Below, one piece after another: positions 1-10,798 of a stretch of DNA of 10,798 nt; position 1 is the stretch's first letter; every line of letters begins with the position of its first letter. The stretch spans positions 1-10,798 of the forward strand of contig MHDQ01000120.1 in NCBI GenBank assembly GCA_001803565.1, read 5' to 3'. The translations under genes were made by a program, and so were the position numbers. Under the pieces are notes generated by a model. It did no database searches and was not told the DNA's origin. It worked only from the letters and a program-made list of their open reading frames with translations. This DNA comes from Nitrospinae bacterium RIFCSPLOWO2_12_FULL_45_22. GTDB lineage: Bacteria > 2-12-FULL-45-22.

Positions 1-759
1 CAGGCCGAGAGACTTTGCCCCTACCACGGCCCGCGCCGCATCAAAGAATTTCATCACTACCCTAAAACCCTCTCCTTCACCGGCTATACGGTTAGCAGCC
101 GGGATTCTGGCATCCTCCAGGATAAGCTCTACATTAGGGATGCCGCGGAAGCCCATCTTGTCTTCTTTTTTGCCAACACTGACCCCCGGGGTGCCTTTCT
201 CTAAAATAAAGGCCGTGATCCCATCCACCCCTTTGCTGGGGTCGGTCTTAGTAAAAAGGGTGATAAAATCGGCAATGTCACCCATAGTACAAAAGCATTT
301 CCGCCCATTCACGATATAATAATCCCCGTCCCTGATAGCCCTGGTAGTGAGGGCACCGGCATCAGAGCCAGCATTAGGCTCGGTCAGGGCAATACCGGAA
401 AACTTTGTGCCCGTAGCCAGTTGGGTAAGGAAGCGTTCCCGCTGTTCTTCAGTACCAGCCTTTTCCAGCAACAATACGCTGGTTAGGGGTGTGTTGGCCA
501 CAAGAGTGGTTACAGCCAGGGAAACCTTGGCTATCTCTTCTACTACCAGACCCAGGGTAGTGAGGCTCTTTACCCCCGGGCCGCCATACTTCTCTGGTAC
601 CATCAACTGCACCAGGCCCTGTTTTCCTAAAAGCTCGGCAATGTCCCAGGGGAATTCATCCGTAGCATCTATCTCCGCAGTCCTTGGGGCGATCTTTTCT
701 GAGGCAATGCGCTTGACAGTCTTTAATAGGAGTTCTTGTTCACTGGTAAGTTCTAACAC
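1..759 (-). CDS. Acyl-CoA dehydrogenase, N-terminal part (3' end outside window)
   Basis: This is a flavoprotein that would oxidise an acyl-CoA to the 2-enoyl-CoA and pass electrons to ETF. The 253 visible codons cover the N-terminal helical domain (opening LELTSEQELLLKTVKRIA, then the family-typical VPEKYGG near residue 55) and the middle beta domain. That domain carries the acyl-CoA dehydrogenase signature GIALTEPNAGSD and, further on, GFRGIPN and the AGEGEGF stretch. Family members are about 380 residues, so roughly a third, including the catalytic-base region, lies beyond position 1 and substrate class cannot be read. The start is GTG at 759: an in-frame stop lies just upstream, and a GGAGG sits three bases before it. 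No frameshift is seen. The next gene on this strand is over 300 bp upstream, so it probably has its own promoter. Class is certain; whether it is a short-chain, glutaryl or other type is not. Confidence 0.95.
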   Translation of the reverse strand, partial: MLELTSEQELLLKTVKRIASEKIAPRTAEIDATDEFPWDIAELLGKQGLVQLMVPEKYGGPGVKSLTTLGLVVEEIAKVSLAVTTLVANTPLTSVLLLEKAGTEEQRERFLTQLATGTKFSGIALTEPNAGSDAGALTTRAIRDGDYYIVNGRKCFCTMGDIADFITLFTKTDPSKGVDGITAFILEKGTPGVSVGKKEDKMGFRGIPNVELILEDARIPAANRIAGEGEGFRVVMKFFDAARAVVGAKSLGL

Positions 760-811
760 TCCCCTCCCCCCGCATCAGCGAATGTCCGAATAGTATAACG
801 TAACCGTTCAG

Positions 812-960
812 CCACCAAGGCACTAAGTCACCAAGGGGTGGCAAATGAGATGTAAACCCCTCGCAAAAAAGTTCAAATGTCAAAGCTCAAATTTATTTGA
901 CATTTCGATTTTAATCTTTTGATTTTAACCATTGGCCTTAGTGTCTTTGTGCCTTAGTGG
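812..960. repeat. 149-bp non-coding element with 25-bp imperfect inverted ends
   Basis: The gene-free stretch 760-1072 contains two 25-base arms, 812-836 and 936-960, that are reverse complements at 21 of 25 positions. Each arm is itself built from short CACTAAGG/CACAAAG-like units. Inside lies a second, perfect 10-bp inverted repeat (AAATGTCAAA at 875-884, TTTGACATTT at 896-905) and AT-rich sequence without a reading frame. A related single arm occurs at 10581-10599. The architecture resembles a small MITE-like or REP-like dispersed element. No transposase is present and no clear target duplication was seen, so mobility is inference. Confidence 0.6.
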
Positions 961-1010
961 CAGAAAGAAGATACACAGGTGAACGGGTACACTATAACTA
1001 TGATCTCATC

Positions 1011-1056
1011 CTGGATTATCCAGTACCTTACTATTTGCTGCTGAAGACCTTCAGCA
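1011..1056 (-). other. Two hairpins downstream of the small membrane protein gene
   Basis: CTGGAT-T-ATCCAG (1011-1023) and TGCTGAAG-ac-CTTCAGCA (1039-1056) are perfect short inverted repeats, starting 17 bp past the stop codon of the small membrane protein on the minus strand. Neither is followed by a T run on that strand. They could slow polymerase or protect the 3' end of the transcript, but a canonical rho-independent terminator is not shown. Confidence 0.35.
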
Positions 1057-1072
1057 TCAGCCCCTTTCAGGG

Positions 1073-1231
1073 TCAGTAACTAACTGTGCCAGTAACTATG
1101 CCAGCGAGCCCGATCAGGCCGATAATCCAGCCCGAACCACCCCCCACTACAAAGGCCAATATAAGGAGAATAATTCCTAAAACCAGCCTGATCATTTGTT
1201 CTATTTTCTCCATATTTTTGCTGATAGCCAT
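1073..1231 (-). CDS. Small DUF2892/YgaP-like membrane protein, 52 aa, shortened C-terminus
   Basis: This 52-residue protein begins MAISKNMEKIEQMIRLVLG. It has two hydrophobic helices (about residues 14-30 and 33-50) separated by a glycine-rich turn GGGSG. The order of a charged amphipathic start, RLxLG, a helix, a glycine turn and a second helix is that of the DUF2892/YgaP transmembrane family, whose members are usually about 60-70 residues. The start is well fixed: AAGGAGGGAGGG lies just before ATG at 1231. The family normally continues after the second helix with a CPLY motif. Here the frame stops right after GTVSY, and the next in-frame codons read stop-P-stop-K-G-L, so the tail may have been lost by mutation. 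A longer frame at 1080-1262 in another phase lacks a ribosome site and any family-like sequence. Function is unknown; the membrane location is predicted. Confidence 0.75.
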   Translation of the reverse strand: MAISKNMEKIEQMIRLVLGIILLILAFVVGGGSGWIIGLIGLAGIVTGTVSY

Positions 1232-1274
1232 AACCCTCCCTCCTTAATTTTGGGTTACTCATAGAAAAGTTTCT

Positions 1275-1302
1275 CTTTTAACCCACAAAACACCTCTGCC
1301 AA
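1275..1302 (-). promoter_or_regulatory. Possible promoter of the small membrane protein gene
   Basis: On the minus strand TTGGCA (1302-1297), a 16-base spacer and TAAAAG (1280-1275) form a sigma70-like pair about 45 bp before the start at 1231. The -35 matches five of six consensus bases but the -10 only four, so this is a moderate candidate. Confidence 0.35.
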
Positions 1303-1322
1303 CTGTAAATAGGCAGTAAGGC

Positions 1323-1356
1323 GTGAGTAGTGAAGAGTGATCTCTTAACTACTTAC
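1323..1356 (-). terminator. Long hairpin after the response-regulator gene
   Basis: Bases 1323-1337 pair with 1342-1356 across a four-base loop. That gives a 15-bp stem with one G-A mismatch and one G-T wobble. It starts 18 bp past the receiver gene's stop codon (minus strand) and lies upstream of the next minus-strand gene, so it could end or attenuate read-through. There is no T run on the exit side, so it may instead be a 3' stabilising structure or part of a GTGAGTAGT-type simple repeat. A weaker stem, CTGCC/GGCAG, lies at 1296-1316. Confidence 0.45.
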
Positions 1357-1373
1357 TCCTCACTAGTAATTGA

Positions 1374-1745
1374 TTAAGCTGGCAATAACTTAGCTATAAG
1401 GGCCTTAATTTGTTCAATTCCAAAGGGTTTGGCCAAGAAACCATTCGCAAGGCCTTCGGCAAAAACTTTATCCACTTCATTTACTTTATATCCAGAGATG
1501 AGGACAAATGGGATTTCAAGGTTTTGGTTTTTTACGGCTTTAAGTAGTTCTATCCCGCTCATTTGTGGCATACGGATATCCGAGATGATTAAGTCAACTT
1601 CATTCCGGGTCAAGGTTTCTAAAGCCTCCACCCCATTAGCCGCCATAATGGATTGATAGCCTAAAAAGTTTAATATATCCAATAACAGCTCCCGGATGCC
1701 TGGTTCATCATCTACTACAAGAATTTTATATGGTTTCGTCTTCAT
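1374..1745 (-). CDS. Stand-alone response-regulator receiver protein (CheY/Spo0F-like), 123 aa
   Basis: This is a single REC domain with no output domain, expected to accept phosphate from a histidine kinase in the cytoplasm and act by protein contact. All key residues are present: acidic pair D12-D13 (VVDDEPG), phospho-acceptor D56 (IISDIRMP), switch residue S84 (LISGY) and lysine K106 (FLAKPFG). The length of 123 residues matches a complete receiver. An AAGGA lies just before the ATG at 1745, and a near-consensus promoter stands 38 bp upstream. No kinase gene is in the window, so the partner is encoded elsewhere. It is divergent from the GlmL operon and separated by a hairpin from the small membrane protein gene. 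It may signal through a phosphorelay or control a kinase or diguanylate cyclase; the sequence does not say which. Confidence 0.93.
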   Translation of the reverse strand: MKTKPYKILVVDDEPGIRELLLDILNFLGYQSIMAANGVEALETLTRNEVDLIISDIRMPQMSGIELLKAVKNQNLEIPFVLISGYKVNEVDKVFAEGLANGFLAKPFGIEQIKALIAKLLPA

Positions 1746-1782
1746 AGTTCCTTTTCTCCCTGCTACACCCTAAGTTTCTATC

Positions 1783-1811
1783 CTTATACACCACCCTATT
1801 TTAGTTGTCAA
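1783..1811 (-). promoter_or_regulatory. Sigma70-type promoter of the receiver gene
   Basis: On the minus strand TTGACA (1811-1806), a 17-base spacer and TATAAG (1788-1783) lie upstream of the receiver gene. Eleven of the twelve consensus bases match and the spacing is ideal. The start point would fall near 1776, giving a leader of about 30 bases. Confidence 0.75.
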
Positions 1812-1824
1812 CAAGAAAACTTCC

Positions 1825-1871
1825 TTGCAACGTCATTAATACAGAGGTAATATCTCTCTCAAATTAGAGAT
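1825..1871 (+). promoter_or_regulatory. Weak promoter candidate and hairpin before the GlmL operon
   Basis: TTGCAA (1825-1830), 17 bases and TAATAT (1848-1853) form a weak promoter pair about 50 bp before the start at 1902. The -10 overlaps an inverted repeat, ATCTCT (1852-1857) and AGAGAT (1866-1871) with an eight-base loop. The repeat could be an operator or a leader hairpin. This is the only reasonable promoter candidate seen for the plus-strand pair. Confidence 0.3.
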
Positions 1872-1901
1872 TAAATTAACCACCTTTGAAAGGTTTCGCT
1901 A

Positions 1902-2243
1902 ATGAGATGGAGGAAGCTAACCACATCATTGAGGCATGCCTTTTTTTCTGGGTCAACTACCGAGATTTTTAACCCTCAGGAGATGGCTCTTTTAGAGAAG
2001 ATTGCTGGTATTATAAGACGGAGAGGGATGGCTACGCCAGCGATTATCTTTCTGGAATCAATTGGCCCATTAAATTTCATTGGGGGCCAACTCCTTCATT
2101 TCTTGAGCCCTATTCTTGAATTAGCTGGCAATCCCTTAGAATTAAAGGAGATAGCCCGGATACTAGAACGTCGTGAAGCCCTGGAAGTACTGATAAGGCT
2201 GATAGAAGAAAAGGAGCAGGGGAAGGAATGGACAGGGAGTTAA
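1902..2243 (+). CDS. Small conserved-looking protein paired with GlmL/MutL, 113 aa
   Basis: This is a soluble, mostly helical protein with no signal peptide. After a basic N-terminus it has the segment RRRGMATPAIIFLESIGPLN, about residues 39-58. A hydrophobic stretch follows (FIGGQLLHFLSPILELAG), then a charged helix ending in LIRLIEEKEQ. The pattern of a short amphipathic helix, PAIxFLES, PLNFIG and a terminal charged helix recalls small unnamed proteins next to B12-dependent mutase or MutL-family genes. That is from memory, and I cannot name a Pfam family. Its 3' end overlaps the GlmL gene by 16 bp, so translation is probably coupled and the products may act together. The ribosome site (GAAAGG, eight bases before ATG) is modest. 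A role in assembling or repairing a mutase complex is inference from the overlap. Confidence 0.75.
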   Translation: MRWRKLTTSLRHAFFSGSTTEIFNPQEMALLEKIAGIIRRRGMATPAIIFLESIGPLNFIGGQLLHFLSPILELAGNPLELKEIARILERREALEVLIRLIEEKEQGKEWTGS

Positions 2244-4024
2244 GGGTTATCCTGGCTACCGATTGCGGCAGTACTACTACTAAAGCTATCCTGATTGAAA
2301 AGATTGGTGAAGAATATCGCCAGACCTGTCGTGGCGAAGCTCCAACCACCGTAGAAGCTCCCTATGAAGATGTTACCAGAGGGGTTCTTAATGCGATTCA
2401 AGAACTAGAAGAGCTTTCTGGCAGGAAGATACTGGCCGGAGAGACGATCATTACCCCGGCCCGGGATAATGAAGGGGTTGATATATATCTCTCTACCAGC
2501 AGCGCCGGTGGTGGATTACAAATGATGGTGGCTGGTGCGGTGAAGCATATGACGGCCGAGAGCGCCCAGCGATGTGCCCTGGGCGCTGGCGCTATAGTTA
2601 TGGATATATTGGCCTCTAACGATGGCCGCATGGGCTACGAGAAGATCGAGCGGATCAGGCAACTCCGGCCGGATATGATCCTATTATCCGGTGGGACAGA
2701 TGGTGGTACTATCACCCATGTAGTAGAATTGGCAGAGTATATAGCTGCGGCCAATCCCAAACCTCGTTTAGGCCACAGCTTTCAATTACCGGTTATCTAT
2801 GCCGGTAACCGGGAGGCCCGGCCAAAGATCAAGGAGGTGTTGGGCCAACACACCGCTCTCTATATAACCGAGAATATAAGACCTGTGCTGGAACAGGAGA
2901 ACCTTCTACCAGCAAGACATAATATCCATGACCTCTTCCTGGAACATGTCATGGCCCAAGCCCCTGGCTATAAACAGCTTATGGAATGGGTAGGAGCTCC
3001 CCTTATGCCTACACCGGCCGCCGTGGGTAATATCATGGAGACTATTGCCCGTAGAGAGGGGATAAATTTGTTAGGGGTAGATATTGGTGGTGCTACTACC
3101 GATGTATTCTCTGTCTTTCAGGGCATATTTAACCGTACAGTCAGCGCCAATCTGGGTATGAGCTATAGTATATCTAATGTAGTGGCAGAAACAGGTATGG
3201 AGAATATTTTGCGCTGGTTACCTTTCCAGATAGATTCTCGGGAGCTAAGGAACCGGATAAAAAATAAGATGGTTCGCCCTACCAGTATACCACAGACCCT
3301 GGAGGAGCTGATGATGGAGCAAGCCATAGCCCGGGAGGCATTAAGGCTTGCCTTTGAACAACATAAACAACTGGCTGTGGGGCTGAAAGGAGTACAGCAA
3401 GAAAGGTCTATTGCTGATGCCTTTGAGCAGCAGGCTACAGGACAAACCCTGATAGATATGTTTAGCTTAGAGCTGTTAGTAGGTAGCGGTGGGATTCTTT
3501 CCCATGCACCCCGCCGGGTTCAAGCAATGCTGATGCTTATAGATGCCTTCCAGCCCATAGGAGTTACCAGGCTAGCGGTGGATAGCATCTTCATGATGCC
3601 CCAGTTAGGGGTTTTAGCTACGGTCAATGAAAAAGCAGCACTGGATGTCTTTGCGCGAGATTGCCTGATCCATTTGGGGACATGCGTGGCGCCAAAGGGG
3701 AAAGGCCGGGTAGAGGAGAAATGTATGGAATATAAGATTAATCTGCCAGGCCAAGCTACTATTGAGAATTCTGTGGTTTTTGGAGAGATAAAGCTTTACC
3801 CCCTAAGGCTGGGAGAGGAGGCAGAGATAGAGGTATTGCCGGGTAAAGGCTTTGACCTGGGGATCGGGAAGGGAAAAAAGCTGAAAAGAAGGGTACCGGG
3901 AGGGGTAGTGGGATTGGTGCTGGATGCCCGGGGGCGGCCTTTAGAATTAGCCAGGGACACAAAAACAAGGATTAATCAACTCCAAAATTGGTGGCAAACA
4001 CTAGACCTCTATCCCCGGGAGTAG
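2228..4024 (+). CDS. glmL: GlmL/MutL-family ASKHA ATPase, putative activator of B12-dependent mutase
   Basis: This 598-residue protein is of the glutamate mutase L (GlmL/MutL) family, unrelated to mismatch-repair MutL. Members have the actin/Hsp70-like ATPase fold and accompany coenzyme-B12-dependent carbon-skeleton mutases, probably as reactivating chaperones. Visible motifs are phosphate-1 loop TDCGSTTTKA (residues 11-20), SSAGGGLQMMVAG (91-103), LLSGGTDGGT (152-161), phosphate-2 loop VDIGGATTDV (284-293) and adenosine-type loop VGSGG (418-422). The C-terminal 110 or so residues add a beta-rich domain, making the protein longer than clostridial GlmL (about 460). The start at 2228 has AGGGG five bases before it and overlaps the upstream gene. 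No mutase subunit is in the window, so the client (methylmalonyl-CoA, glutamate or another mutase) cannot be decided; the nearby acyl-CoA dehydrogenase mildly favours an acyl-CoA mutase. Confidence 0.9.
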   Translation: MDRELRVILATDCGSTTTKAILIEKIGEEYRQTCRGEAPTTVEAPYEDVTRGVLNAIQELEELSGRKILAGETIITPARDNEGVDIYLSTSSAGGGLQMMVAGAVKHMTAESAQRCALGAGAIVMDILASNDGRMGYEKIERIRQLRPDMILLSGGTDGGTITHVVELAEYIAAANPKPRLGHSFQLPVIYAGNREARPKIKEVLGQHTALYITENIRPVLEQENLLPARHNIHDLFLEHVMAQAPGYKQLMEWVGAPLMPTPAAVGNIMETIARREGINLLGVDIGGATTDVFSVFQGIFNRTVSANLGMSYSISNVVAETGMENILRWLPFQIDSRELRNRIKNKMVRPTSIPQTLEELMMEQAIAREALRLAFEQHKQLAVGLKGVQQERSIADAFEQQATGQTLIDMFSLELLVGSGGILSHAPRRVQAMLMLIDAFQPIGVTRLAVDSIFMMPQLGVLATVNEKAALDVFARDCLIHLGTCVAPKGKGRVEEKCMEYKINLPGQATIENSVVFGEIKLYPLRLGEEAEIEVLPGKGFDLGIGKGKKLKRRVPGGVVGLVLDARGRPLELARDTKTRINQLQNWWQTLDLYPRE

Positions 4025-4028
4025 TTTC

Positions 4029-4065
4029 ACTGCATAGGAATTTCTATTTTAATAATGCAGTTTTT
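4029..4065 (+). terminator. Possible terminator after the GlmL gene
   Basis: ACTGCAT (4029-4035) pairs with ATGCAGT (4055-4061), and the stem runs straight into TTTTT (4061-4065), five bases after the GlmL stop. Position and T run fit a rho-independent terminator, but the stem is only 7 bp and AT-rich with a 19-base loop. The following stretch, 4066-4199, shows no gene; it holds a CCACAAAG fragment like the arms of the 812-960 element. Confidence 0.4.
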
Positions 4066-4199
4066 CAGTATATCAATCCCGAAAAGAGCAAGAGGGTAGA
4101 AGTAAAACAGATAAGATGAACCACAAAGCCTGTCCTGAGCCCTATCCTTAATAAATATCCTCATATCCCTTAATAGCTACTTAGTCATGGCCTCGGAAG

Positions 4200-4238
4200 T
4201 TTGACACCCTTGCCACAATATTGTGGGAGGGTGTCAAA
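4200..4238. promoter_or_regulatory. 39-bp nested palindrome upstream of the KAP operon
   Basis: TTTGACACCCT (4200-4210) and AGGGTGTCAAA (4228-4238) are perfect 11-bp arms enclosing a perfect 14-bp palindrome, CCACAAT/ATTGTGG (4213-4226). Only the two bases TG on the left face one G on the right unpaired. It ends 20 bp before the -35 box of the KAP promoter, a position suited to an operator or activator site. No T run follows, so a terminator is less likely. The outer arms contain TTGACA, but no -10 stands at the right distance. Confidence 0.65.
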
Positions 4239-4258
4239 GTTGGGTTGACTCAATAGGG

Positions 4259-4287
4259 TTGAAATTAAATGGCTTTTGCTTTATTAT
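4259..4287 (+). promoter_or_regulatory. Promoter of the KAP NTPase operon
   Basis: TTGAAA (4259-4264), exactly 17 bases and TATTAT (4282-4287) match ten of twelve consensus positions. Transcription would begin near 4294, about 37 bases before ATG 4331. This also argues against translation starting at an in-frame GTG at 4223, which would lie upstream of the transcript. Confidence 0.65.
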
Positions 4288-4330
4288 TCGTAAAAGAAGA
4301 CCAAAGAGAAGAGGGAGTAATTTAATCCAA

Positions 4331-5662
4331 ATGCTTATTGATAAACCTTTATCCATAGATACTATATTTAAGTACGAAAGACCGCTCGAACAGATTAAGA
4401 ATATCCTCAATGTGGCAAAAGAACTAATGGATGCCAACACAGGGGGCAGCGTAACTATTGCTGTAACTGGCGATTGGGGGAGTGGCAAGACCACCATCTT
4501 AAAGGGAATGGAAAGCTTTTTTAGAGACCTATGTAGCTTTCCGGTGGTCTTTTTTGAGGTATGGAAGTATCATAAGGAAAAAAATCCTCTGGTCCCTTTA
4601 ATCCTACAAATAAGAGACTCTTTAAGCCTGAAGGCCAGTATAAAAGGTAAATTAACGAGGATTGCAAAACCCTTATCTGTGATAGGGCTTAATCTTGCAG
4701 ACCTTGTCTTAAAACTCTCTACCCAGGATAAGTTGAGTGTAGGCGGGGTAATGACCATTTTTAAAGAGGTTGAAGATATTCAGGAAAATCTAAAATCTAG
4801 ATACAAGGATAATATCGAAGCCTTAAGAGGAACCATTGGGGATTTAATAAAGAATTATGACCCTGATGTGAACAAGGATCAACCATATAGAACATCCTGG
4901 CAGGAGTTGGAGAAAGAGAAAGGAAACCTGGCCTGGCGCTCCTCGGAGAAAAAAATCTTTGTACTCCTTATAGATGACCTTGATAGGCTTGTTCCCAAAA
5001 AAGCATTCGCTGTAATAGAGGAGTTGAGGTTCTACTTTGATATTGATAATGTCCTGATAGTGATGGGGGTAAACGATAGGATCTTAAATGGCTATGTAGA
5101 AAAATACTACGGAATAACAAAGGAAGATCATCATCTCATTCATAACAGAGGAGAAAAATTTATAGACAAGATATTTCATTGGAACTTTGAAATACCATTT
5201 AGTATGTCAGAGGCAATTCATTTAAGAAGCCTGGAAACACATCTGGAAGAGAGAGAGTTGGAGGCATTAAAAATCCTCCTTCAAGCTATAGACCATCTAC
5301 CCCATAGGAGATGGGTAAAATTGGTAAATAGAATTGAGAAAAAATGCTCCCTGGCATTCAGCAATGATATATATGAGATTGTATTTGCCGCATTCTTAAA
5401 GGAACTATTCCCTGACTTTGAGCTATTCTCCAGAAGATTCCCTTTAATTACATCCGCTCTATATAACCTGTTTGCTGGTGAAGTATTCCATTTCCTTGAC
5501 TTTACAAAACGTATAAAAGATCAGGATTATTCAGAAGGGTTGCCAGAAGAAGTTGTAAGTGCAGTAAAGATAATCTTGGACGACAAAACCTACCTGGACC
5601 TCCCTGAAAGGAACATCATTACCTTCCATAGCCGGATTAGGGGAAAGAAGGAAGAGGTTTAA
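4331..5662 (+). CDS. KAP-family P-loop NTPase, 443 aa
   Basis: This is a cytoplasmic NTPase of the KAP family (the Kidins220/ARMS and PifA group), a STAND-related ATPase clade whose bacterial members include phage-exclusion proteins. Walker A is TGDWGSGKTT (residues 46-55). The family-typical VVFFEVWKYHKEKNPLVPLI follows it. Walker B is VLLIDDLDRLVPKKA (I214-D215-D216), then VLIVMGVNDRIL and FIDKIFHWNFEIP, all in KAP order. Many KAP proteins carry transmembrane helices between Walker A and B; here that region (about 90-200) is amphipathic and charged, with no clear membrane segment. ATG 4331 is chosen because the promoter lies just upstream and the KAP fold begins at once. Its GAGGGAG is 13 bases away, a long spacing. 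Extension to GTG 4223 is possible but would translate half the palindrome. The next gene starts one base after the stop. Confidence 0.88.
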   Translation: MLIDKPLSIDTIFKYERPLEQIKNILNVAKELMDANTGGSVTIAVTGDWGSGKTTILKGMESFFRDLCSFPVVFFEVWKYHKEKNPLVPLILQIRDSLSLKASIKGKLTRIAKPLSVIGLNLADLVLKLSTQDKLSVGGVMTIFKEVEDIQENLKSRYKDNIEALRGTIGDLIKNYDPDVNKDQPYRTSWQELEKEKGNLAWRSSEKKIFVLLIDDLDRLVPKKAFAVIEELRFYFDIDNVLIVMGVNDRILNGYVEKYYGITKEDHHLIHNRGEKFIDKIFHWNFEIPFSMSEAIHLRSLETHLEERELEALKILLQAIDHLPHRRWVKLVNRIEKKCSLAFSNDIYEIVFAAFLKELFPDFELFSRRFPLITSALYNLFAGEVFHFLDFTKRIKDQDYSEGLPEEVVSAVKIILDDKTYLDLPERNIITFHSRIRGKKEEV

Positions 5663-5663
5663 T

Positions 5664-6638
5664 ATGCCCCTCAGTTTAGATGAATATTATAGAAGCGGTC
5701 ATCTCTATCTTGAGTCAGAGAGAGGGAGAGAGGAGGTCTTTACCCTTTTAGCGAAGGAGCTTGAAACCAGCCTTAAGGAAAATAGATGGAGAAAGGCTCT
5801 ATGGGTAGCAGATAATATATATGATTTTGTGAAGAAGAGTAATCTGATCTATGCCAATTTTGACCTCCCAAATCTCTCCGGGTTGAGACAAGAGAGTGAT
5901 GAGATCAAAAAAAGTGCCCTTAAATTTTTAGGAGAGAAAGATAATATCAAATTATTCAAAAAAGCAATTGTCAGGATGGACAAGGCATCCTATAAGTCCA
6001 GGGTCTTTCTCATCCTCATTAAATACCTGCCAGAGATAGAGGGCCTTCCCCTGGTACACTTTACGGATCTGTATCTTATGATCTTTAATACCCTCTATTT
6101 TCTGGATAAGACCGAGGGGGCAGAGGTAGAGAGGTTTGATCTGGGCGATATGCTGGTAAGGGCCTCCTTAAGGTATGATTGCCGTGAGATGTGCGCATCC
6201 TTTCTGAGTGATCGGAAGCTAAAAGACCTTCTGGATTCCGAGGAATACAGATATAGATTTACTCCCTATAGAGAGTATGGGAGCAAACTCGTTAAGGCAT
6301 TGGACAATATGGATAAGAAAAACAAACCTGAGGTAGCAGTACTTACCCCCTTTGTCTTTACCGATATGCTCTTTTACCTTATTGATGAGCGTTTTGAGGG
6401 GCGTCTCAGGAAGGGGTTGATTGAGGGGAAGGAGAAGATACTCCTGCATATCAGAGAGAGGGTGGATGGCCTGTTTGAGGGTGATGATAAAGAGCTCTTA
6501 AAAGAAATGATCTCTTTTCGTATCAGTACAAGGATAGATGAACTGGCTAAATCTAAACCCTTTGGTCCGGGCTATTCTGTAGCTAAAGAGCTTCCTTTTC
6601 AGTTTCAAAATCAGAGGATAGAGAACCTAAAAGATTAA
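5664..6638 (+). CDS. Helical protein of unknown family, KAP operon partner, 324 aa
   Basis: I do not recognise this protein. It is predicted soluble and almost entirely helical, rich in charged and leucine residues, with no signal peptide, no membrane segment and no catalytic motif that I can see. It opens MPLSLDEYYRSGHLYLESER. Segments such as RWRKALWVADNIYDF and FLILIKYLPEIEGLPLV suggest an alpha-solenoid or scaffold. The ATG follows the KAP stop by one base, and AAGAGG lies at the end of the KAP gene, so the two are co-transcribed and probably co-translated; a complex with the KAP NTPase is a fair inference. Its last 56 bp are antisense to the 3' end of the CHAT-STAND gene. Hydrophilicity and full length speak for a real gene rather than a shadow. 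Confidence 0.8.
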   Translation: MPLSLDEYYRSGHLYLESERGREEVFTLLAKELETSLKENRWRKALWVADNIYDFVKKSNLIYANFDLPNLSGLRQESDEIKKSALKFLGEKDNIKLFKKAIVRMDKASYKSRVFLILIKYLPEIEGLPLVHFTDLYLMIFNTLYFLDKTEGAEVERFDLGDMLVRASLRYDCREMCASFLSDRKLKDLLDSEEYRYRFTPYREYGSKLVKALDNMDKKNKPEVAVLTPFVFTDMLFYLIDERFEGRLRKGLIEGKEKILLHIRERVDGLFEGDDKELLKEMISFRISTRIDELAKSKPFGPGYSVAKELPFQFQNQRIENLKD

Positions 6639-9600
6639 GGAACCACTCGAACCTCTGGAGATAGAGAGGTGAAAGCGTTGTCCTAGCAACCATATCCTGA
6701 AATCCCTTCTTCACCTTTTCTGTGCCAATCCTTTCAAAGGTCTTATTCCTGATAAAGAAACCGATTATCCCTATCGCAAGTCTTTTATCCTTATCCCAGA
6801 ATATGTCAAAGACCTCAAGGAAGTCACGGATATATCCGGCTATCTCCGGGTAGTCAGGGGGAGAGATACGGGTAGAGGAATCTATTAAAGGGGGTAAGGT
6901 TGCAAAAAGATCTTCATAATCCTTCCTCCCTCTGTAGATATCAAGGGCCTTCTCATAGTATTCTATCGCCCTGGCATAATCTCCTCTGGCTTGATAAACC
7001 ATTGCCAGATTGTTGTAGGTAGCAGCAGTATCGGGGTGGTCTCTGCCCAGCCTGGTCTCCCTTATCTTAAGGGCCTTCTCATAGTATTCTATCGCCCTGG
7101 CATAATCTCCTTTGGCTTGATAAACCACGGCCAGGTTGTTGTAGGTAGTGGCAGTATGGGGGTGGTCTTTGCCCAGCCTTGACTCCACTATCTCAATGGC
7201 CTTCTCATAGTATTCCATCGCCCTGGCATAATCTCCTTTGGCTTGATAAACCATTGCCAGGTTGTGGTAGGTAGCGGCAGTATCGGGGTGGTCTTTACCC
7301 AGCCTTGACTCCACTATCTCAATGGCCTTCTCATAGTATTCTATCGCCCTGGCATAATCTCCTTTGGCTTGATAAACCACGGCCAGGTTGTTATAGGTTT
7401 GGGCAGTATCGGGGTGGTCTTTACCCAGCCTTGACTCCCTTATCTTAAGGGCCTTCTCATAGTATTCTATCGCCCTAGCATAATCTCCTTTGGCTTGATA
7501 AACCACGGCCAGGTTGTTGTAGGTAGTGGCAGTATGGGGGTGGTCTCTGCCCAGCCTTGACTCCCTTATCTTAAGGGCCTGCTCATAGTATTCTATCGCC
7601 CTGGCATAATCTCCTTTGGCTTGATAAACCATTGCCAGATTGTTGTAGGTAGTGGCAGTATGGGGGTGGTCTTTACCCAGCCTTGACTCCACTATCTTAA
7701 GGGCCTTTCCATAGTATTCTATCGCCCTAGCATAATCTCCTTTGGCTTGATAAACCGATGCCAGATTGTTGTAGGTAGCGGCAGTATGGGGGTGGTCTTT
7801 ACCCAGCCTGGTCTCCTTTATCTTAAGGGCCTTCTCATAGTATCCTATCGCTATATCATACTCCCCTCTGGCATGATAAACCCCTGCCAGATTGTGGTAG
7901 GTAGTGGCAGTATCGGGATGGTCTTTACCCAGCCTTGACTCTATTATCTTAAGGGCCTTCTCACAGTATTCTATCGCCCTAGCATACTCTCCTCTGGCTT
8001 GATAAACCGATGCCAGATTGTTGTAGGTAGCGGCAAGGTCTTCATCTTCCTTTTTAATCTCTTTAAGGCTTTCCTCAAAGGTTATGAGAAGGTTCTCTGT
8101 AACTATCTCACTCAACCCCTCCCATTGAGAAAGGGTTATGAAGACCTTGAGGAGATATTCTTCTATGTTTCTATCCATTGTCTCCTGATGGTAAGTTGTA
8201 AAGATAGAAAGGATGTTCATCAGGTCGTATGGGGTCAAGCCCTCTTTATCTCCTCCTAAGATATGGAGGAGTTTGTCCTTCAGTAGGGTTAGACCTTCTG
8301 CCCGGAAGTCACCTTTGAAGTAGGACTTTATGACCTGATATGGCAGGTAGTGGTCAGCAAGCCTCTTCAGGATAAGGAGTCTCTCTGTAAGGAGGGAGAT
8401 AAACCCTGCCTCAAAGAGGTGGTTAAGGAGGGTCTTGGAAAAGGGATATTCCAGGGAGAAGAGCCTCTCTGTTTCTTTTCTGTTACTTTCAAAATAGGGC
8501 CGGTAAAACTCAAGGACTTCTCTTAGCTCCCCTGTCCCAAAGACCTTGTCCAGTGATATGCCCCTCTTTTCAATCACTGCGGAGAGGGAGAGTGGATGAT
8601 AGCCATAGAGGGCTACTATGAAGGGTAGATTCTCTTTGAAGAATGCCTTTTCCTTTTTATCTAAACCCTGGTACAGGAAACCTACTTCGCCATCGCTATA
8701 TTCACCGATCTCAAGGGTATTCTCAAGGGGTTGTCTGGTAGAGAGATAGGGCTTCAATCGGCTGGTAAGGATGGTAAAGGCCGTTTTTGTGTTTAAGATT
8801 TCGCTTAAAAATCTCTGATACCTATCCCGTATTACCCCCTTTTCATCCTGTATGGACTCAAGGTTATCAAGGATAAATAGCCAGGGGGTAGCAATCTTCT
8901 CATTCAAAATTCTCCACTTCTTTATAAAGTCCTTCCCCTCAAGCTCCTCCTTACTTATAATTTCCTCGCGTTTAAACTCCTCAAGGAGCCTCTCCACCAG
9001 GGCCTCAGGGGTGTCTATATGTTCTGCTCTCAGGTCAATAAAAATAATGTGTTTAAACCTGCCCTCAAAAAACTCTGCTAGATAGGCCGCCAGGGTGCTC
9101 TTCCCTGCCCCACCGATCCCGTGAAGGACGAGATGGTTCTGATCCCCCCCTATCAAATCCGAGGCCTGCCTAACGATACCGTATCTATAGACATAGTTCT
9201 TGATAGTCATTGGGGGTCGGTAGATGACCTTTTTTGCCTTTTCCCTTTTCTCTGCCTCCCCTTTAAGGTCAAAGCCCCCCTTTCCGGCTTTACCGAATAC
9301 AACGGGTTTCCACCAGTCTATATTAAGCATCAGCCTCGCATCGTTTAATACATTCTCAATGGTCTCCTCTTTAAAGACCCTCTGGTAAATGAGCCTGGTG
9401 GTTTGGGTAGCCAGGTCGTCTCTTACCGGCGCGAGGTTGGCAATGACCATGGCTGAGTCAATATTTTGGAAGATATTATAGGCGAGGGATGGGGCATAGG
9501 GGGAGGGTTTTGCTGTCTCACAGGCATTGAAGTAGAAGAGGGCTACATTGGCGCCCTCAAAGAGTCTCTTTAGTTCATCTGAAGTAAGGCGCTTCTCTCT

Positions 9601-10266
9601 TTCATTGTCCTTCTCATCCTCTATCGCCAGCAAACCACCCCCGGCACCATGCCCAATAAAGTGGACGATGTGATAGTGCCCTCTCAAGAGCCTCTTCCTC
9701 ACAGTGGGTAGGTTTACCTTCTCCTCGATATCTATCTGCACAAGACCCTTTCTCAAGTAATCATCAAGGGCGGTGTATATGGTCTGGAGCTCTCTCAAGG
9801 GATCAATGGGATGCTCCTCATAGGTCTCAAGGGGGAGGGAGAGGAGGGTAAGGATCCTTATAGGTAGTTGGGCTGGGAGTATCTTTTTGTCCAGGGCAGG
9901 TATGTCTCTCAGGATAGAGATATTCCCCCTCTTTAGCAAAAATCCCGTCTCTGTCCTATCATTGTTAATAATCTCAAAGGGGAGGCTATGGAGCTGCGGG
10001 TCATTGGATTTGATGGTGATATTCAGGCTGTGCTGGTCCTTTAGTTCCTCGAGGATAAGGGTGATCCTTTCTCTCCTCTTTGCGGTGGCGAATATGCTAT
10101 GGAAGAGCTCAAAGCCGTAGGCAATGAGCTCACTATCCGGGAGGCGGCCCTCTTTAAGGAGCTTCTCTTGATAATAGGGGCTCAGACTGTAGGCTGTCGG
10201 TTCATCACCATCAACCGAGACTGTATCTTTGGTGATAAAGATATCCATGTTCTTCTTTTCTCCCAT
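6583..10266 (-). CDS. CHAT protease - STAND/NB-ARC NTPase - TPR protein, 1227 aa
   Basis: This large cytoplasmic signalling protein has three modules. Residues about 1-325 are a CHAT caspase-like peptidase: LHSLPFEII (92-100), catalytic His in HFIGHGAGGG (H206) and catalytic Cys in FYFNACETA (C249). Residues about 350-620 are a STAND ATPase of NB-ARC type: Walker A GIGGAGKST (383-391), Walker B LFILDNLES (D467), sensor ILTSR (R503) and YGYHPLSLS with the GxP-like proline P558. A helical linker leads to nine 42-residue TPRs (747-1124), kinesin-light-chain style, and a helical tail of about 100 residues. The expected role is TPR sensing of a ligand, NTP-driven opening and CHAT proteolysis, as in prokaryotic conflict or programmed-death systems; target and trigger are unknown. 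All catalytic residues are intact. ATG 10266 has a weak AAGG; M7 (10248) with GGGAG is a possible alternative. It converges on the KAP operon. Confidence 0.92.
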   Translation of the reverse strand: MGEKKNMDIFITKDTVSVDGDEPTAYSLSPYYQEKLLKEGRLPDSELIAYGFELFHSIFATAKRRERITLILEELKDQHSLNITIKSNDPQLHSLPFEIINNDRTETGFLLKRGNISILRDIPALDKKILPAQLPIRILTLLSLPLETYEEHPIDPLRELQTIYTALDDYLRKGLVQIDIEEKVNLPTVRKRLLRGHYHIVHFIGHGAGGGLLAIEDEKDNEREKRLTSDELKRLFEGANVALFYFNACETAKPSPYAPSLAYNIFQNIDSAMVIANLAPVRDDLATQTTRLIYQRVFKEETIENVLNDARLMLNIDWWKPVVFGKAGKGGFDLKGEAEKREKAKKVIYRPPMTIKNYVYRYGIVRQASDLIGGDQNHLVLHGIGGAGKSTLAAYLAEFFEGRFKHIIFIDLRAEHIDTPEALVERLLEEFKREEIISKEELEGKDFIKKWRILNEKIATPWLFILDNLESIQDEKGVIRDRYQRFLSEILNTKTAFTILTSRLKPYLSTRQPLENTLEIGEYSDGEVGFLYQGLDKKEKAFFKENLPFIVALYGYHPLSLSAVIEKRGISLDKVFGTGELREVLEFYRPYFESNRKETERLFSLEYPFSKTLLNHLFEAGFISLLTERLLILKRLADHYLPYQVIKSYFKGDFRAEGLTLLKDKLLHILGGDKEGLTPYDLMNILSIFTTYHQETMDRNIEEYLLKVFITLSQWEGLSEIVTENLLITFEESLKEIKKEDEDLAATYNNLASVYQARGEYARAIEYCEKALKIIESRLGKDHPDTATTYHNLAGVYHARGEYDIAIGYYEKALKIKETRLGKDHPHTAATYNNLASVYQAKGDYARAIEYYGKALKIVESRLGKDHPHTATTYNNLAMVYQAKGDYARAIEYYEQALKIRESRLGRDHPHTATTYNNLAVVYQAKGDYARAIEYYEKALKIRESRLGKDHPDTAQTYNNLAVVYQAKGDYARAIEYYEKAIEIVESRLGKDHPDTAATYHNLAMVYQAKGDYARAMEYYEKAIEIVESRLGKDHPHTATTYNNLAVVYQAKGDYARAIEYYEKALKIRETRLGRDHPDTAATYNNLAMVYQARGDYARAIEYYEKALDIYRGRKDYEDLFATLPPLIDSSTRISPPDYPEIAGYIRDFLEVFDIFWDKDKRLAIGIIGFFIRNKTFERIGTEKVKKGFQDMVARTTLSPLYLQRFEWFLNLLGSLSSDFETEKEAL
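6651..6670 (+). other. Small hairpin past the KAP operon end
   Basis: ACCTCT (6651-6656) and AGAGGT (6665-6670) form a 6-bp stem 12 bp after the stop of the helical protein, inside the CHAT gene on the other strand. There is no T run. It is the only candidate 3' structure seen for the plus-strand operon and may be chance. Confidence 0.2.
6895..8028 (-). repeat. Nine tandem 126-bp repeats encoding TPRs
   Basis: Nine in-frame units of exactly 126 bp encode the TPR array, read in the minus direction from 8028 to 6895. Core units share long runs of DNA identity, including at third codon positions: the parts encoding VYQAKGDYARAIEYYEKAL recur almost base for base. The first two units, nearest the linker, and the last are more diverged. 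Unit 9 loses the usual RLGKDHP end. Such similarity points to recent tandem duplication or gene conversion, so copy number may vary among strains and an assembly could collapse it. Confidence 0.95.
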
Positions 10267-10308
10267 GACCTTTTATGCACAGGTAGGTGTTAACTCAGGC
10301 CCCTCTAT

Positions 10309-10333
10309 TTACCATAGATTATATGGTAATCTA
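10309..10333 (-). promoter_or_regulatory. Putative promoter and operator of the CHAT-STAND-TPR gene
   Basis: On the minus strand a perfect TATAAT (10323-10318) lies 51 bp before ATG 10266. It is embedded in two overlapping inverted repeats: TTACCATA/TATGGTAA (10309-10316 with 10322-10329) and TAGATTA/TAATCTA (10315-10321 with 10327-10333), each with a five-base centre. No good -35 stands 16-18 bases upstream, so the promoter may be weak, activator-dependent or use another sigma factor. A dimeric regulator bound here would cover the -10 box. Confidence 0.5.
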
Positions 10334-10580
10334 AAACCCTTCCTGACATCAAGATTTTTCTCATTTCGCCTATTCTTCTTGACTCCGCGCGAAATCCTTT
10401 AGAATATTCCCGGGTGCTGCCCCCCCCCTTTTTTTTCTGATCCCGCTTGCTTAAGAAACCCCTAAGACGTGTGGATGGTTTTAAATTAATAAACCTCCAA
10501 AACCTTTCTATGAGATTTAAACCCGAGTTTCAGATTTGGGCTATTCCATGACGGAAATATTCAGTAAAAACTAATTAAAT
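10334..10580. other. Gene-free upstream region with a C9T8 tract
   Basis: I see no gene on either strand here. Notable are a C9T8 polypyrimidine tract (10420-10436), a short inverted repeat ATTTCGC/GCGAAAT near 10360-10395, and GAATATTC followed by CCCGGG just before the tract. AT-rich sequence with stops in every frame follows. The region probably serves only as upstream DNA of the CHAT gene. Confidence 0.5.
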
Positions 10581-10599
10581 TCTTTGTGTCCTTTGTGGT
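10581..10599. repeat. Single arm related to the 812-960 element
   Basis: TCTTTGTGTCCTTTGTGG closely matches the right arm of the 812-960 element (TCTTTGTGCCTTAGTGG): beyond one extra base, two positions differ. No partner arm was found near it, so it is a solo arm or a decayed copy. Confidence 0.45.
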
Positions 10600-10624
10600 A
10601 ACAAATTTAACTTACAAAAATTGT

Positions 10625-10654
10625 TTGACAAGAAAGGAATTAGTATGCTACAAA
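10625..10654 (+). promoter_or_regulatory. Promoter-like sequence pointing to the right edge
   Basis: A perfect TTGACA (10625-10630), an 18-base spacer and TACAAA (10649-10654) preceded by TGC form an extended -10 type promoter. No convincing gene follows in the window. If it is active, the transcript either starts a gene beyond 10798 or is an RNA ending near the G/C hairpin at 10688. Confidence 0.3.
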
Positions 10655-10687
10655 TATTTAATTTATCGTCGCTTTTTGCAATCAATT

Positions 10688-10708
10688 CCCCCTGAAAACT
10701 GGGGGGGG
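10688..10708. other. G/C hairpin with a G8 run near the right edge
   Basis: CCCCC (10688-10692) can pair with part of the G8 run (10701-10708) across TGAAAACT. It has no T run and may be a REP-like intergenic repeat. The remaining sequence to 10798 shows a short direct repeat TGGCAAAG (about 10754 and 10769) and no gene. Confidence 0.35.
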
Positions 10709-10798
10709 TCGTAACAGTTTAGCCCAATAAAGCATCTCATGGATTATTTGTAGTGGCAAAGCTTGTCTGGCAAAGACTTTTTCCGTGGCAACTAACTA

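What the first reader, a model, noticed from the sequence alone, without database searches (positions are those of the whole stretch)
4200..10340. KAP NTPase operon convergent with a CHAT-STAND-TPR gene: candidate two-module conflict system
Two different P-loop signalling NTPases face each other tail to tail with no other gene between. One is joined to a caspase-like CHAT protease with both catalytic residues (H206, C249) and a TPR sensor; the other is paired with an unrecognised helical protein. CHAT-STAND fusions are known in prokaryotic conflict systems, and KAP proteins include the phage-exclusion protein PifA. I do not know this exact three-gene pairing. Joint function is inference from proximity and overlap.
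Basis: partly seen in the sequence, partly recalled or inferred. Interest (0 to 1): 0.72.

Follow-up and report, generated by a model that had tools for sequence, protein, structure and literature searches.

The report
Conserved KAP–partner–CHAT-STAND convergent gene cassette
Three bacterial genes facing each other tail to tail (a caspase-like sensor protease against an NTPase and its helical partner) recur as one compact, previously undescribed cassette in distantly related bacteria, which suggests a protease-switched immunity-type system whose job still has to be tested.

Summary
In detail: KAP NTPase (4331-5662 +), an unassigned 324-aa helical protein (5664-6638 +) and a 1227-aa CHAT–STAND–TPR protein (6583-10266 −) lie tail to tail and overlap by 56 nt. 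The same convergent layout recurs in Desulfobacterota (three genomes), Melioribacteraceae and a MAG labelled Campylobacterales. Tails lie within −94 to +29 nt each time, between unrelated housekeeping genes. The proteins are only 28–41% (KAP, CHAT-STAND) or 12–25% (partner) identical between lineages. The CHAT-STAND genes form one well-supported clade with invariant His/Cys and P-loop Lys. Every KAP–partner pair with a visible 3′ side faces a TPR or CHAT-STAND gene, whereas two CHAT-STAND genes lack the pair and one faces a ParB-like pair instead. This asymmetry suggests CHAT-STAND is the sensor/activator and KAP–partner its dedicated downstream module. The CHAT model matches SAVED-CHAT, separase and caspases. 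Defence is plausible but untested: no defence genes in the flanks examined, no phage or plasmid copies. I found no published description. Best mechanism: STAND oligomerisation switches on the CHAT protease, which acts on KAP–partner. Shown: conserved cassette. Inferred: substrate, effector, anti-phage role.

The parts
4331..5662 (+). KAP-family P-loop NTPase, 443 aa (K53 Walker A, D215-D216 Walker B)
   Evidence: PF07693 E=1e-25; PADLOC PDC-S20/PifA/QatA partial matches; clade with relatives 100/99 support
5664..6638 (+). partner protein, 324 aa, all-helical, no known family, fastest evolving of the three
   Evidence: no Pfam/PADLOC/NCBIfam/PHROG/PDB hit; homologues or positional counterparts directly downstream of KAP in L016, L017, L019, L066; AF2 model of ~17 helices, pLDDT 65, solenoid-like
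6583..10266 (-). CHAT-STAND-TPR protein, 1227 aa
   Evidence: relatives 35-46% identical over the first 640 residues
9325..10047 (-). CHAT caspase-like protease domain (residues ~74-314; H206, C249)
   Evidence: Pfam CHAT E=3e-15; AF2 model matches SAVED-CHAT 8tl0 E=2.5e-9, separase, caspase-8
8407..9153 (-). STAND-class P-loop NTPase (residues ~372-620; K389); end approximate
   Evidence: AAA_22 30 bits and NPHP3_N over cut-off, NACHT and NB-ARC below cut-off; P-loop Lys invariant
6880..8079 (-). TPR array, 9 near-identical 42-aa units (126-bp DNA repeats, mostly 88-92% identical)
6583..6638 (.). 56-nt tail-to-tail overlap of the partner and CHAT-STAND coding regions; the tight tail-to-tail spacing recurs in relatives (-94 to +29 nt)

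Best explanation
A compact, horizontally scattered three-gene cassette in which an NLR-like CHAT-STAND-TPR protein is the sensor and protease switch, and KAP plus its helical partner are the module it controls. Proposed steps: (1) the TPR array binds a ligand [inferred]; (2) the STAND NTPase oligomerises with ATP [inferred from family knowledge]; (3) this activates the CHAT protease, whose catalytic His/Cys are invariant [residues and fold supported, activity inferred]; (4) the protease cleaves or otherwise releases the KAP-partner complex, most likely the fast-evolving partner [inferred]; (5) the KAP NTPase then acts as effector, probably causing growth arrest or phage exclusion [inferred]. 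Shown: the conserved linkage, the orientation, the intact active sites and the asymmetric dependence. The convergent overlap leaves no room for a terminator, so mutual antisense control of the two transcripts is likely [inferred].
For: Same convergent three-gene layout in the window, L017 and L066 on single contigs. Also in L016, whose cut CHAT-STAND has its N-half on another contig of the same genome, and partially visible in L019 and L061. All five KAP-partner pairs with visible 3' sides face a TPR or CHAT-STAND gene, and L061 shows the same from the CHAT-STAND side. CHAT-STAND clade supported 99/99, with KAP-linked members on its main branches, so the link is probably ancestral. H, C and K invariant. 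Tails within -94 to +29 nt. The CHAT model matches SAVED-CHAT, separase and caspases. Asymmetry: CHAT-STAND occurs without the pair (L055, L065) or facing a ParB-like/REase-like pair (L089). Precedent: the TPR-CHAT protease Csx29 cleaves co-encoded Csx30 (PMC10028731).
Against: No direct evidence of cleavage, NTPase activity or phage phenotype. Flanks are housekeeping and no flanking defence genes were found. Only 2-4 genomes per roughly 390 carry the CHAT-STAND clade. Two CHAT-STAND genes lack the pair. Partner homology rests partly on position (12-25% identity between lineages; the L066 partner was missed by the profile). The partner model is of low confidence.
Confidence: 0.5

Rival explanations
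1. The two modules are functionally independent genes that travel in one cassette: a CHAT-STAND conflict gene and a separate KAP-type gene pair that happen to be inherited together.
For: CHAT-STAND genes without the pair. Own genome has a KAP (C51) and a CHAT-STAND (C42) apart. A solo KAP is seen in L018.
Against: The exact orientation and tail-to-tail contact are kept at 12-41% protein identity in unrelated genomic surroundings. The partner was never seen without the TPR gene. The solo KAP of L018 has lost its Walker B motif.
Confidence: 0.22
2. KAP-partner is the antidote or inhibitor that holds the CHAT-STAND protease in check, as in a guard or toxin-antitoxin arrangement.
For: Tight linkage; partner evolves fastest; convergent transcription could balance doses.
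Against: CHAT-STAND with intact catalytic and P-loop residues survives without a neighbouring pair in L055 and L065, which an obligate linked antidote would not allow; a pair elsewhere in those genomes was not searched for.
Confidence: 0.12
3. Not defence: a stress or developmental signalling cassette (caspase-like sensor controlling an NTPase) in environmental bacteria.
For: Housekeeping flanks, no flanking PADLOC genes, no close phage, plasmid or viral copies.
Against: Patchy presence in about 1% of genomes or fewer across phyla is typical of accessory conflict genes. Its KAP matches PADLOC candidate PDC-S20, PifA and QatA. One clade member faces a PD-Lambda-5_A-like gene.
Confidence: 0.16

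Closest known systems
Type III-E Craspase (TPR-CHAT Csx29 / Csx30 / CASP-sigma)
   Same: CHAT protease with TPRs whose co-encoded neighbour is its substrate (PMC10028731)
   Different: No Cas7-11 or CRISPR; here a STAND NTPase is built in; the neighbours are a KAP NTPase and a helical protein, transcribed convergently
SAVED-CHAT (PDB 8tl0)
   Same: Best structural match of the CHAT domain (E 2.5e-9); its activated form is a filament, according to the PDB title
   Different: Carries a SAVED domain; here STAND and TPR replace it
PifA, QatABCD (QatA) and PADLOC candidate PDC-S20 KAP NTPases
   Same: KAP P-loop domain; partial matches E 1e-13 to 1e-25
   Different: Far below the QatA equivalog cut-off (66 vs 600 bits); no qatBCD; shorter than PifA; has a dedicated partner and a CHAT-STAND neighbour
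STAND/AP-ATPase-TPR plus caspase conflict systems of Kaur et al. 2020/2021 (PMC7159879, PMC8195603)
   Same: STAND + TPR + caspase-like logic; KAP noted there as able to displace STAND
   Different: No mention of CHAT in either text and none of a KAP-partner pair convergent to a CHAT-STAND gene

Membership tests
KAP P-loop NTPases (PF07693) | KAP P-loop domain over the curated cut-off with Walker A and B | tested here: met
   90.7 bits vs cut-off 20; GDWGSGKT, DDLDR
KAP P-loop NTPases (PF07693) | transmembrane helices inserted in the P-loop domain (common, not universal, so not required for membership) | tested here: not met
   maximum 19-residue hydropathy 1.38, no clear TM segment
STAND (NLR-like) proteins | effector domain - STAND NTPase - C-terminal repeat sensor | tested here: met
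   CHAT, P-loop NTPase and 9 TPRs in this order; the NTPase passes AAA_22 and NPHP3_N but not the NB-ARC or NACHT cut-off
CHAT proteases | CHAT domain with catalytic His and Cys | tested here: met
   Pfam E=3e-15; H206 and C249 invariant; fold match
CHAT proteases | proteolytic activity | not testable with these tools
   needs an enzyme assay
Type III-E Craspase | Cas7-11/gRAMP and CRISPR array at the locus | tested here: not met
   none among the genes of the window or its right flank to 21 kb; none among genes read beside L016, L017, L066
QatABCD | QatA over equivalog cut-off and qatBCD genes | tested here: not met
   66 of 600 bits; no qatBCD among neighbours
Anti-phage defence system | protection against phage | not testable with these tools
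   plaque assays needed
Anti-phage defence system | location in defence islands (usual, not required) | tested here: not met
   housekeeping flanks and no PADLOC hit in ten flanking proteins; few loci tested
Partner protein: ARM/HEAT solenoids | significant fold match | tested here: inconclusive
   Foldseek best E 0.4; VIA Z up to 9.5, within the range of common helical arrangements

The most novel reading that the evidence does not exclude
A previously undescribed family of bacterial NLR-caspase systems in which a STAND-activated CHAT protease controls a dedicated, convergently encoded two-gene effector module (KAP NTPase + helical partner), with the module occasionally swapped for another pair (ParB-like + REase-like), and with antisense overlap coordinating the two arms.
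Probability: 0.4. Interest if true: 0.78.

Novelty: new variant of a known kind. Interest (0 to 1): 0.62.

Why it matters
It turns a one-genome guess into a defined, portable cassette with a clear hypothesis: does an NLR-like caspase relative act on a KAP NTPase and its partner? KAP NTPases (PifA, QatA) have poorly understood activation, and many CHAT-STAND proteins have no known substrate. This locus pairs one of each and names a candidate substrate. The conserved tail-to-tail overlap is also a good case for testing antisense coordination of a sensor and its effector.

Tried and rejected
Partner protein: no relative in plasmids, viral contigs or genome contigs with a single-sequence query, nor in the only other genome of its phylum held; found only through its KAP neighbour. 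AF2 of the partner with five sequences is low confidence; the weak ARM/HEAT and designed-repeat matches are not taken as a family. KAP in viral contigs: three distant relatives without partner. More distant CHAT-STAND genes of Nitrospirota (L090-L092, E about 1e-34) were read and used only as outgroup; no KAP-clade or partner match there. A membrane KAP was considered; no clear TM segment. A Csx29/Craspase reading was rejected (no Cas7-11). An obligate linked antidote reading is disfavoured by orphans with no KAP or partner remnants beside them. The KAP and partner trees are too poorly resolved for a co-phylogeny test. A literature search for SAVED-CHAT/PCaspase found nothing in the library.
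Full report
Observation. The window is bases 1-10798 of a 21,135-bp contig in a fragmented 3.67-Mb genome that is about 85% complete; only one other genome of its phylum is held. The three genes are real and are as described, with small corrections. The KAP NTPase starts at ATG 4331 (443 aa). The partner (324 aa) starts one base after the KAP stop. The CHAT-STAND-TPR gene (1227 aa) runs from 10266 to 6583 on the minus strand, so the two coding regions overlap by 56 nt at their tails. There is no terminator-like site at the junction. H206, C249, K389 and KAP K53 are correct.

Own genome. To the right of the CHAT-STAND gene lies an F-type ATP synthase operon; to the left of KAP lie a MutL-like gene, a response regulator and an acyl-CoA dehydrogenase. 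The genome has a second KAP of the same clade on C51, 37% identical and cut off by the contig end, with housekeeping genes upstream. It has two further CHAT genes on C42 and C318 that are not seen next to a KAP. So the two domain families also occur apart in this genome.

The linkage is conserved. A KAP alignment search of genome contigs brought 32 loci. Three of them, besides the window, show KAP, then a partner gene touching it, then a convergent TPR gene: L016 (Melioribacteraceae), L017 (Desulfobacterales) and L019 (a MAG contig labelled Campylobacterales). In L017 the whole CHAT-STAND-TPR gene is present (E 3e-118). In L016 the contig breaks inside the TPR array; the missing N-half, 40% identical, lies at the end of another contig of the same genome and carries the same repeat family. 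A CHAT-STAND profile search of 395 Desulfobacterota genomes found four carriers: L017's genome, G316 (L066, complete three-gene convergent locus), G276 (L061, CHAT-STAND facing the tail of a partner gene 67% identical to that of G316) and G091 (orphan). The same search in the class of L016 gave one further carrier, G686, an orphan facing an aldo/keto reductase. In Nitrospirota it gave G1067 (cut by the contig) and G994. In the class of G316 it gave G794, also cut.

Altogether six loci show the convergent arrangement fully or in the visible part: three complete on one contig (window, L017, L066), one split over two contigs (L016/L056) and two partial (L019, L061). Tail spacing is -56 (window), +29 (L016), -94 (L017), -23 (L019), -4 (L066) and -4 nt (L061). 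Identities between lineages are 28-38% for KAP, 12-25% for the partner and 31-41% for the CHAT-STAND N-terminal 640 residues of the KAP-linked members. Flanking genes differ: ATP synthase, SpoIIE-type 7TM sensor, rarA and ndk, rluD and purL. Ten flanking proteins gave no PADLOC match. Such retention of order, orientation and contact at this divergence, in different surroundings, is not expected by chance and points to transfer as a unit.

Phylogeny. The ten CHAT-STAND sequences form a clade with 99/99 support against other CHAT-STAND genes. KAP-linked members occur on both deep branches, so the association is most simply ancestral, with absence in G091 and G686 being secondary. No KAP or partner remnants are detectable beside the orphans; whether those genomes hold the pair elsewhere was not searched. 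Dependence looks one-sided: every KAP-partner pair whose 3' side is visible faces the TPR gene, but CHAT-STAND can occur without the pair. A KAP without partner (L018) has lost Walker B. In G994 the CHAT-STAND gene faces, at 26 nt, a different two-gene unit: a ParB-like protein matching PADLOC PD-Lambda-5_A (E 2e-21) and a REase-like protein (my reading of its motif; no Pfam match). The two match phage families phrog_3694 and phrog_3984, and relatives of the ParB-like gene lie in P2-like phages such as Wphi gp98. One case, between two near-identical CHAT-STAND copies, is a hint and not proof of module swapping.

Proteins. The CHAT model (pLDDT 77) matches SAVED-CHAT best, then separase and caspases. 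The partner is all-helical (about 17 helices), with a better-modelled N-terminal half and only common solenoid-like matches. The TPR units of the window protein are about 81% identical to the next at protein level, a sign of recent homogenisation or expansion, and the unit number varies from about 4 to 12 between relatives.

Mechanism. Known precedent is a CHAT protease that cleaves a co-encoded neighbour after activation (Csx29-Csx30, PMC10028731). By analogy, TPR ligand binding and STAND oligomerisation would activate CHAT, which acts on the KAP-partner module. The fast-evolving partner is the first candidate substrate or adaptor. The convergent overlap allows antisense coordination of the arms, as described for excludons and convergent genes without a terminator between them (PMC7154746). 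Substrate, effector action and any anti-phage role are inferences.

Literature. Searches for CHAT, STAND, KAP and TPR in combination gave related conflict-system surveys. In the texts of Kaur 2020/2021 and of the DGR paper I found no such triad. The library lacks most subscription papers and preprints, so absence there is not proof.

Verdict. Two known domain families in an unreported, conserved three-gene convergent cassette. Linkage is strongly supported; the defence role is plausible but unproven.

Noticed in passing
window 4197-4241: Long near-perfect hairpin (AAGTTTGACACCCT...AGGGTGTCAAAGTT with inner CCACAATATTGTGG), -30 kcal/mol, z -5.1, between the MutL-like gene and KAP; no poly-U tail; found in no locus fetched from elsewhere. 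Terminator, operator or element end.
   Followed up: partly
L089 (G994:C48) 89-7675: Two near-identical CHAT-STAND copies flank a ParB-like (PD-Lambda-5_A-like) plus REase-like pair; relatives of the ParB-like gene occur in P2-like phages (Wphi gp98).
   Followed up: partly
L011 9220-10041 (G000:C51): Second KAP of the same clade in the window's genome, 37% identical, cut by the contig end; its downstream genes are unknown.
   Followed up: partly
L061 1376-1421 (G276:C50): The CHAT-STAND gene is split into two frames here (frameshift or assembly error).
   Followed up: no
L010 173-1198: ATP synthase operon beside the cassette begins with one 341-aa ORF that looks like two b-type subunits in one frame.
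   Followed up: no
L018 9998-11152: Solo KAP in a Nitrospirae MAG keeps Walker A but has lost the Walker B DDLDR motif; may be degenerating.
   Followed up: no
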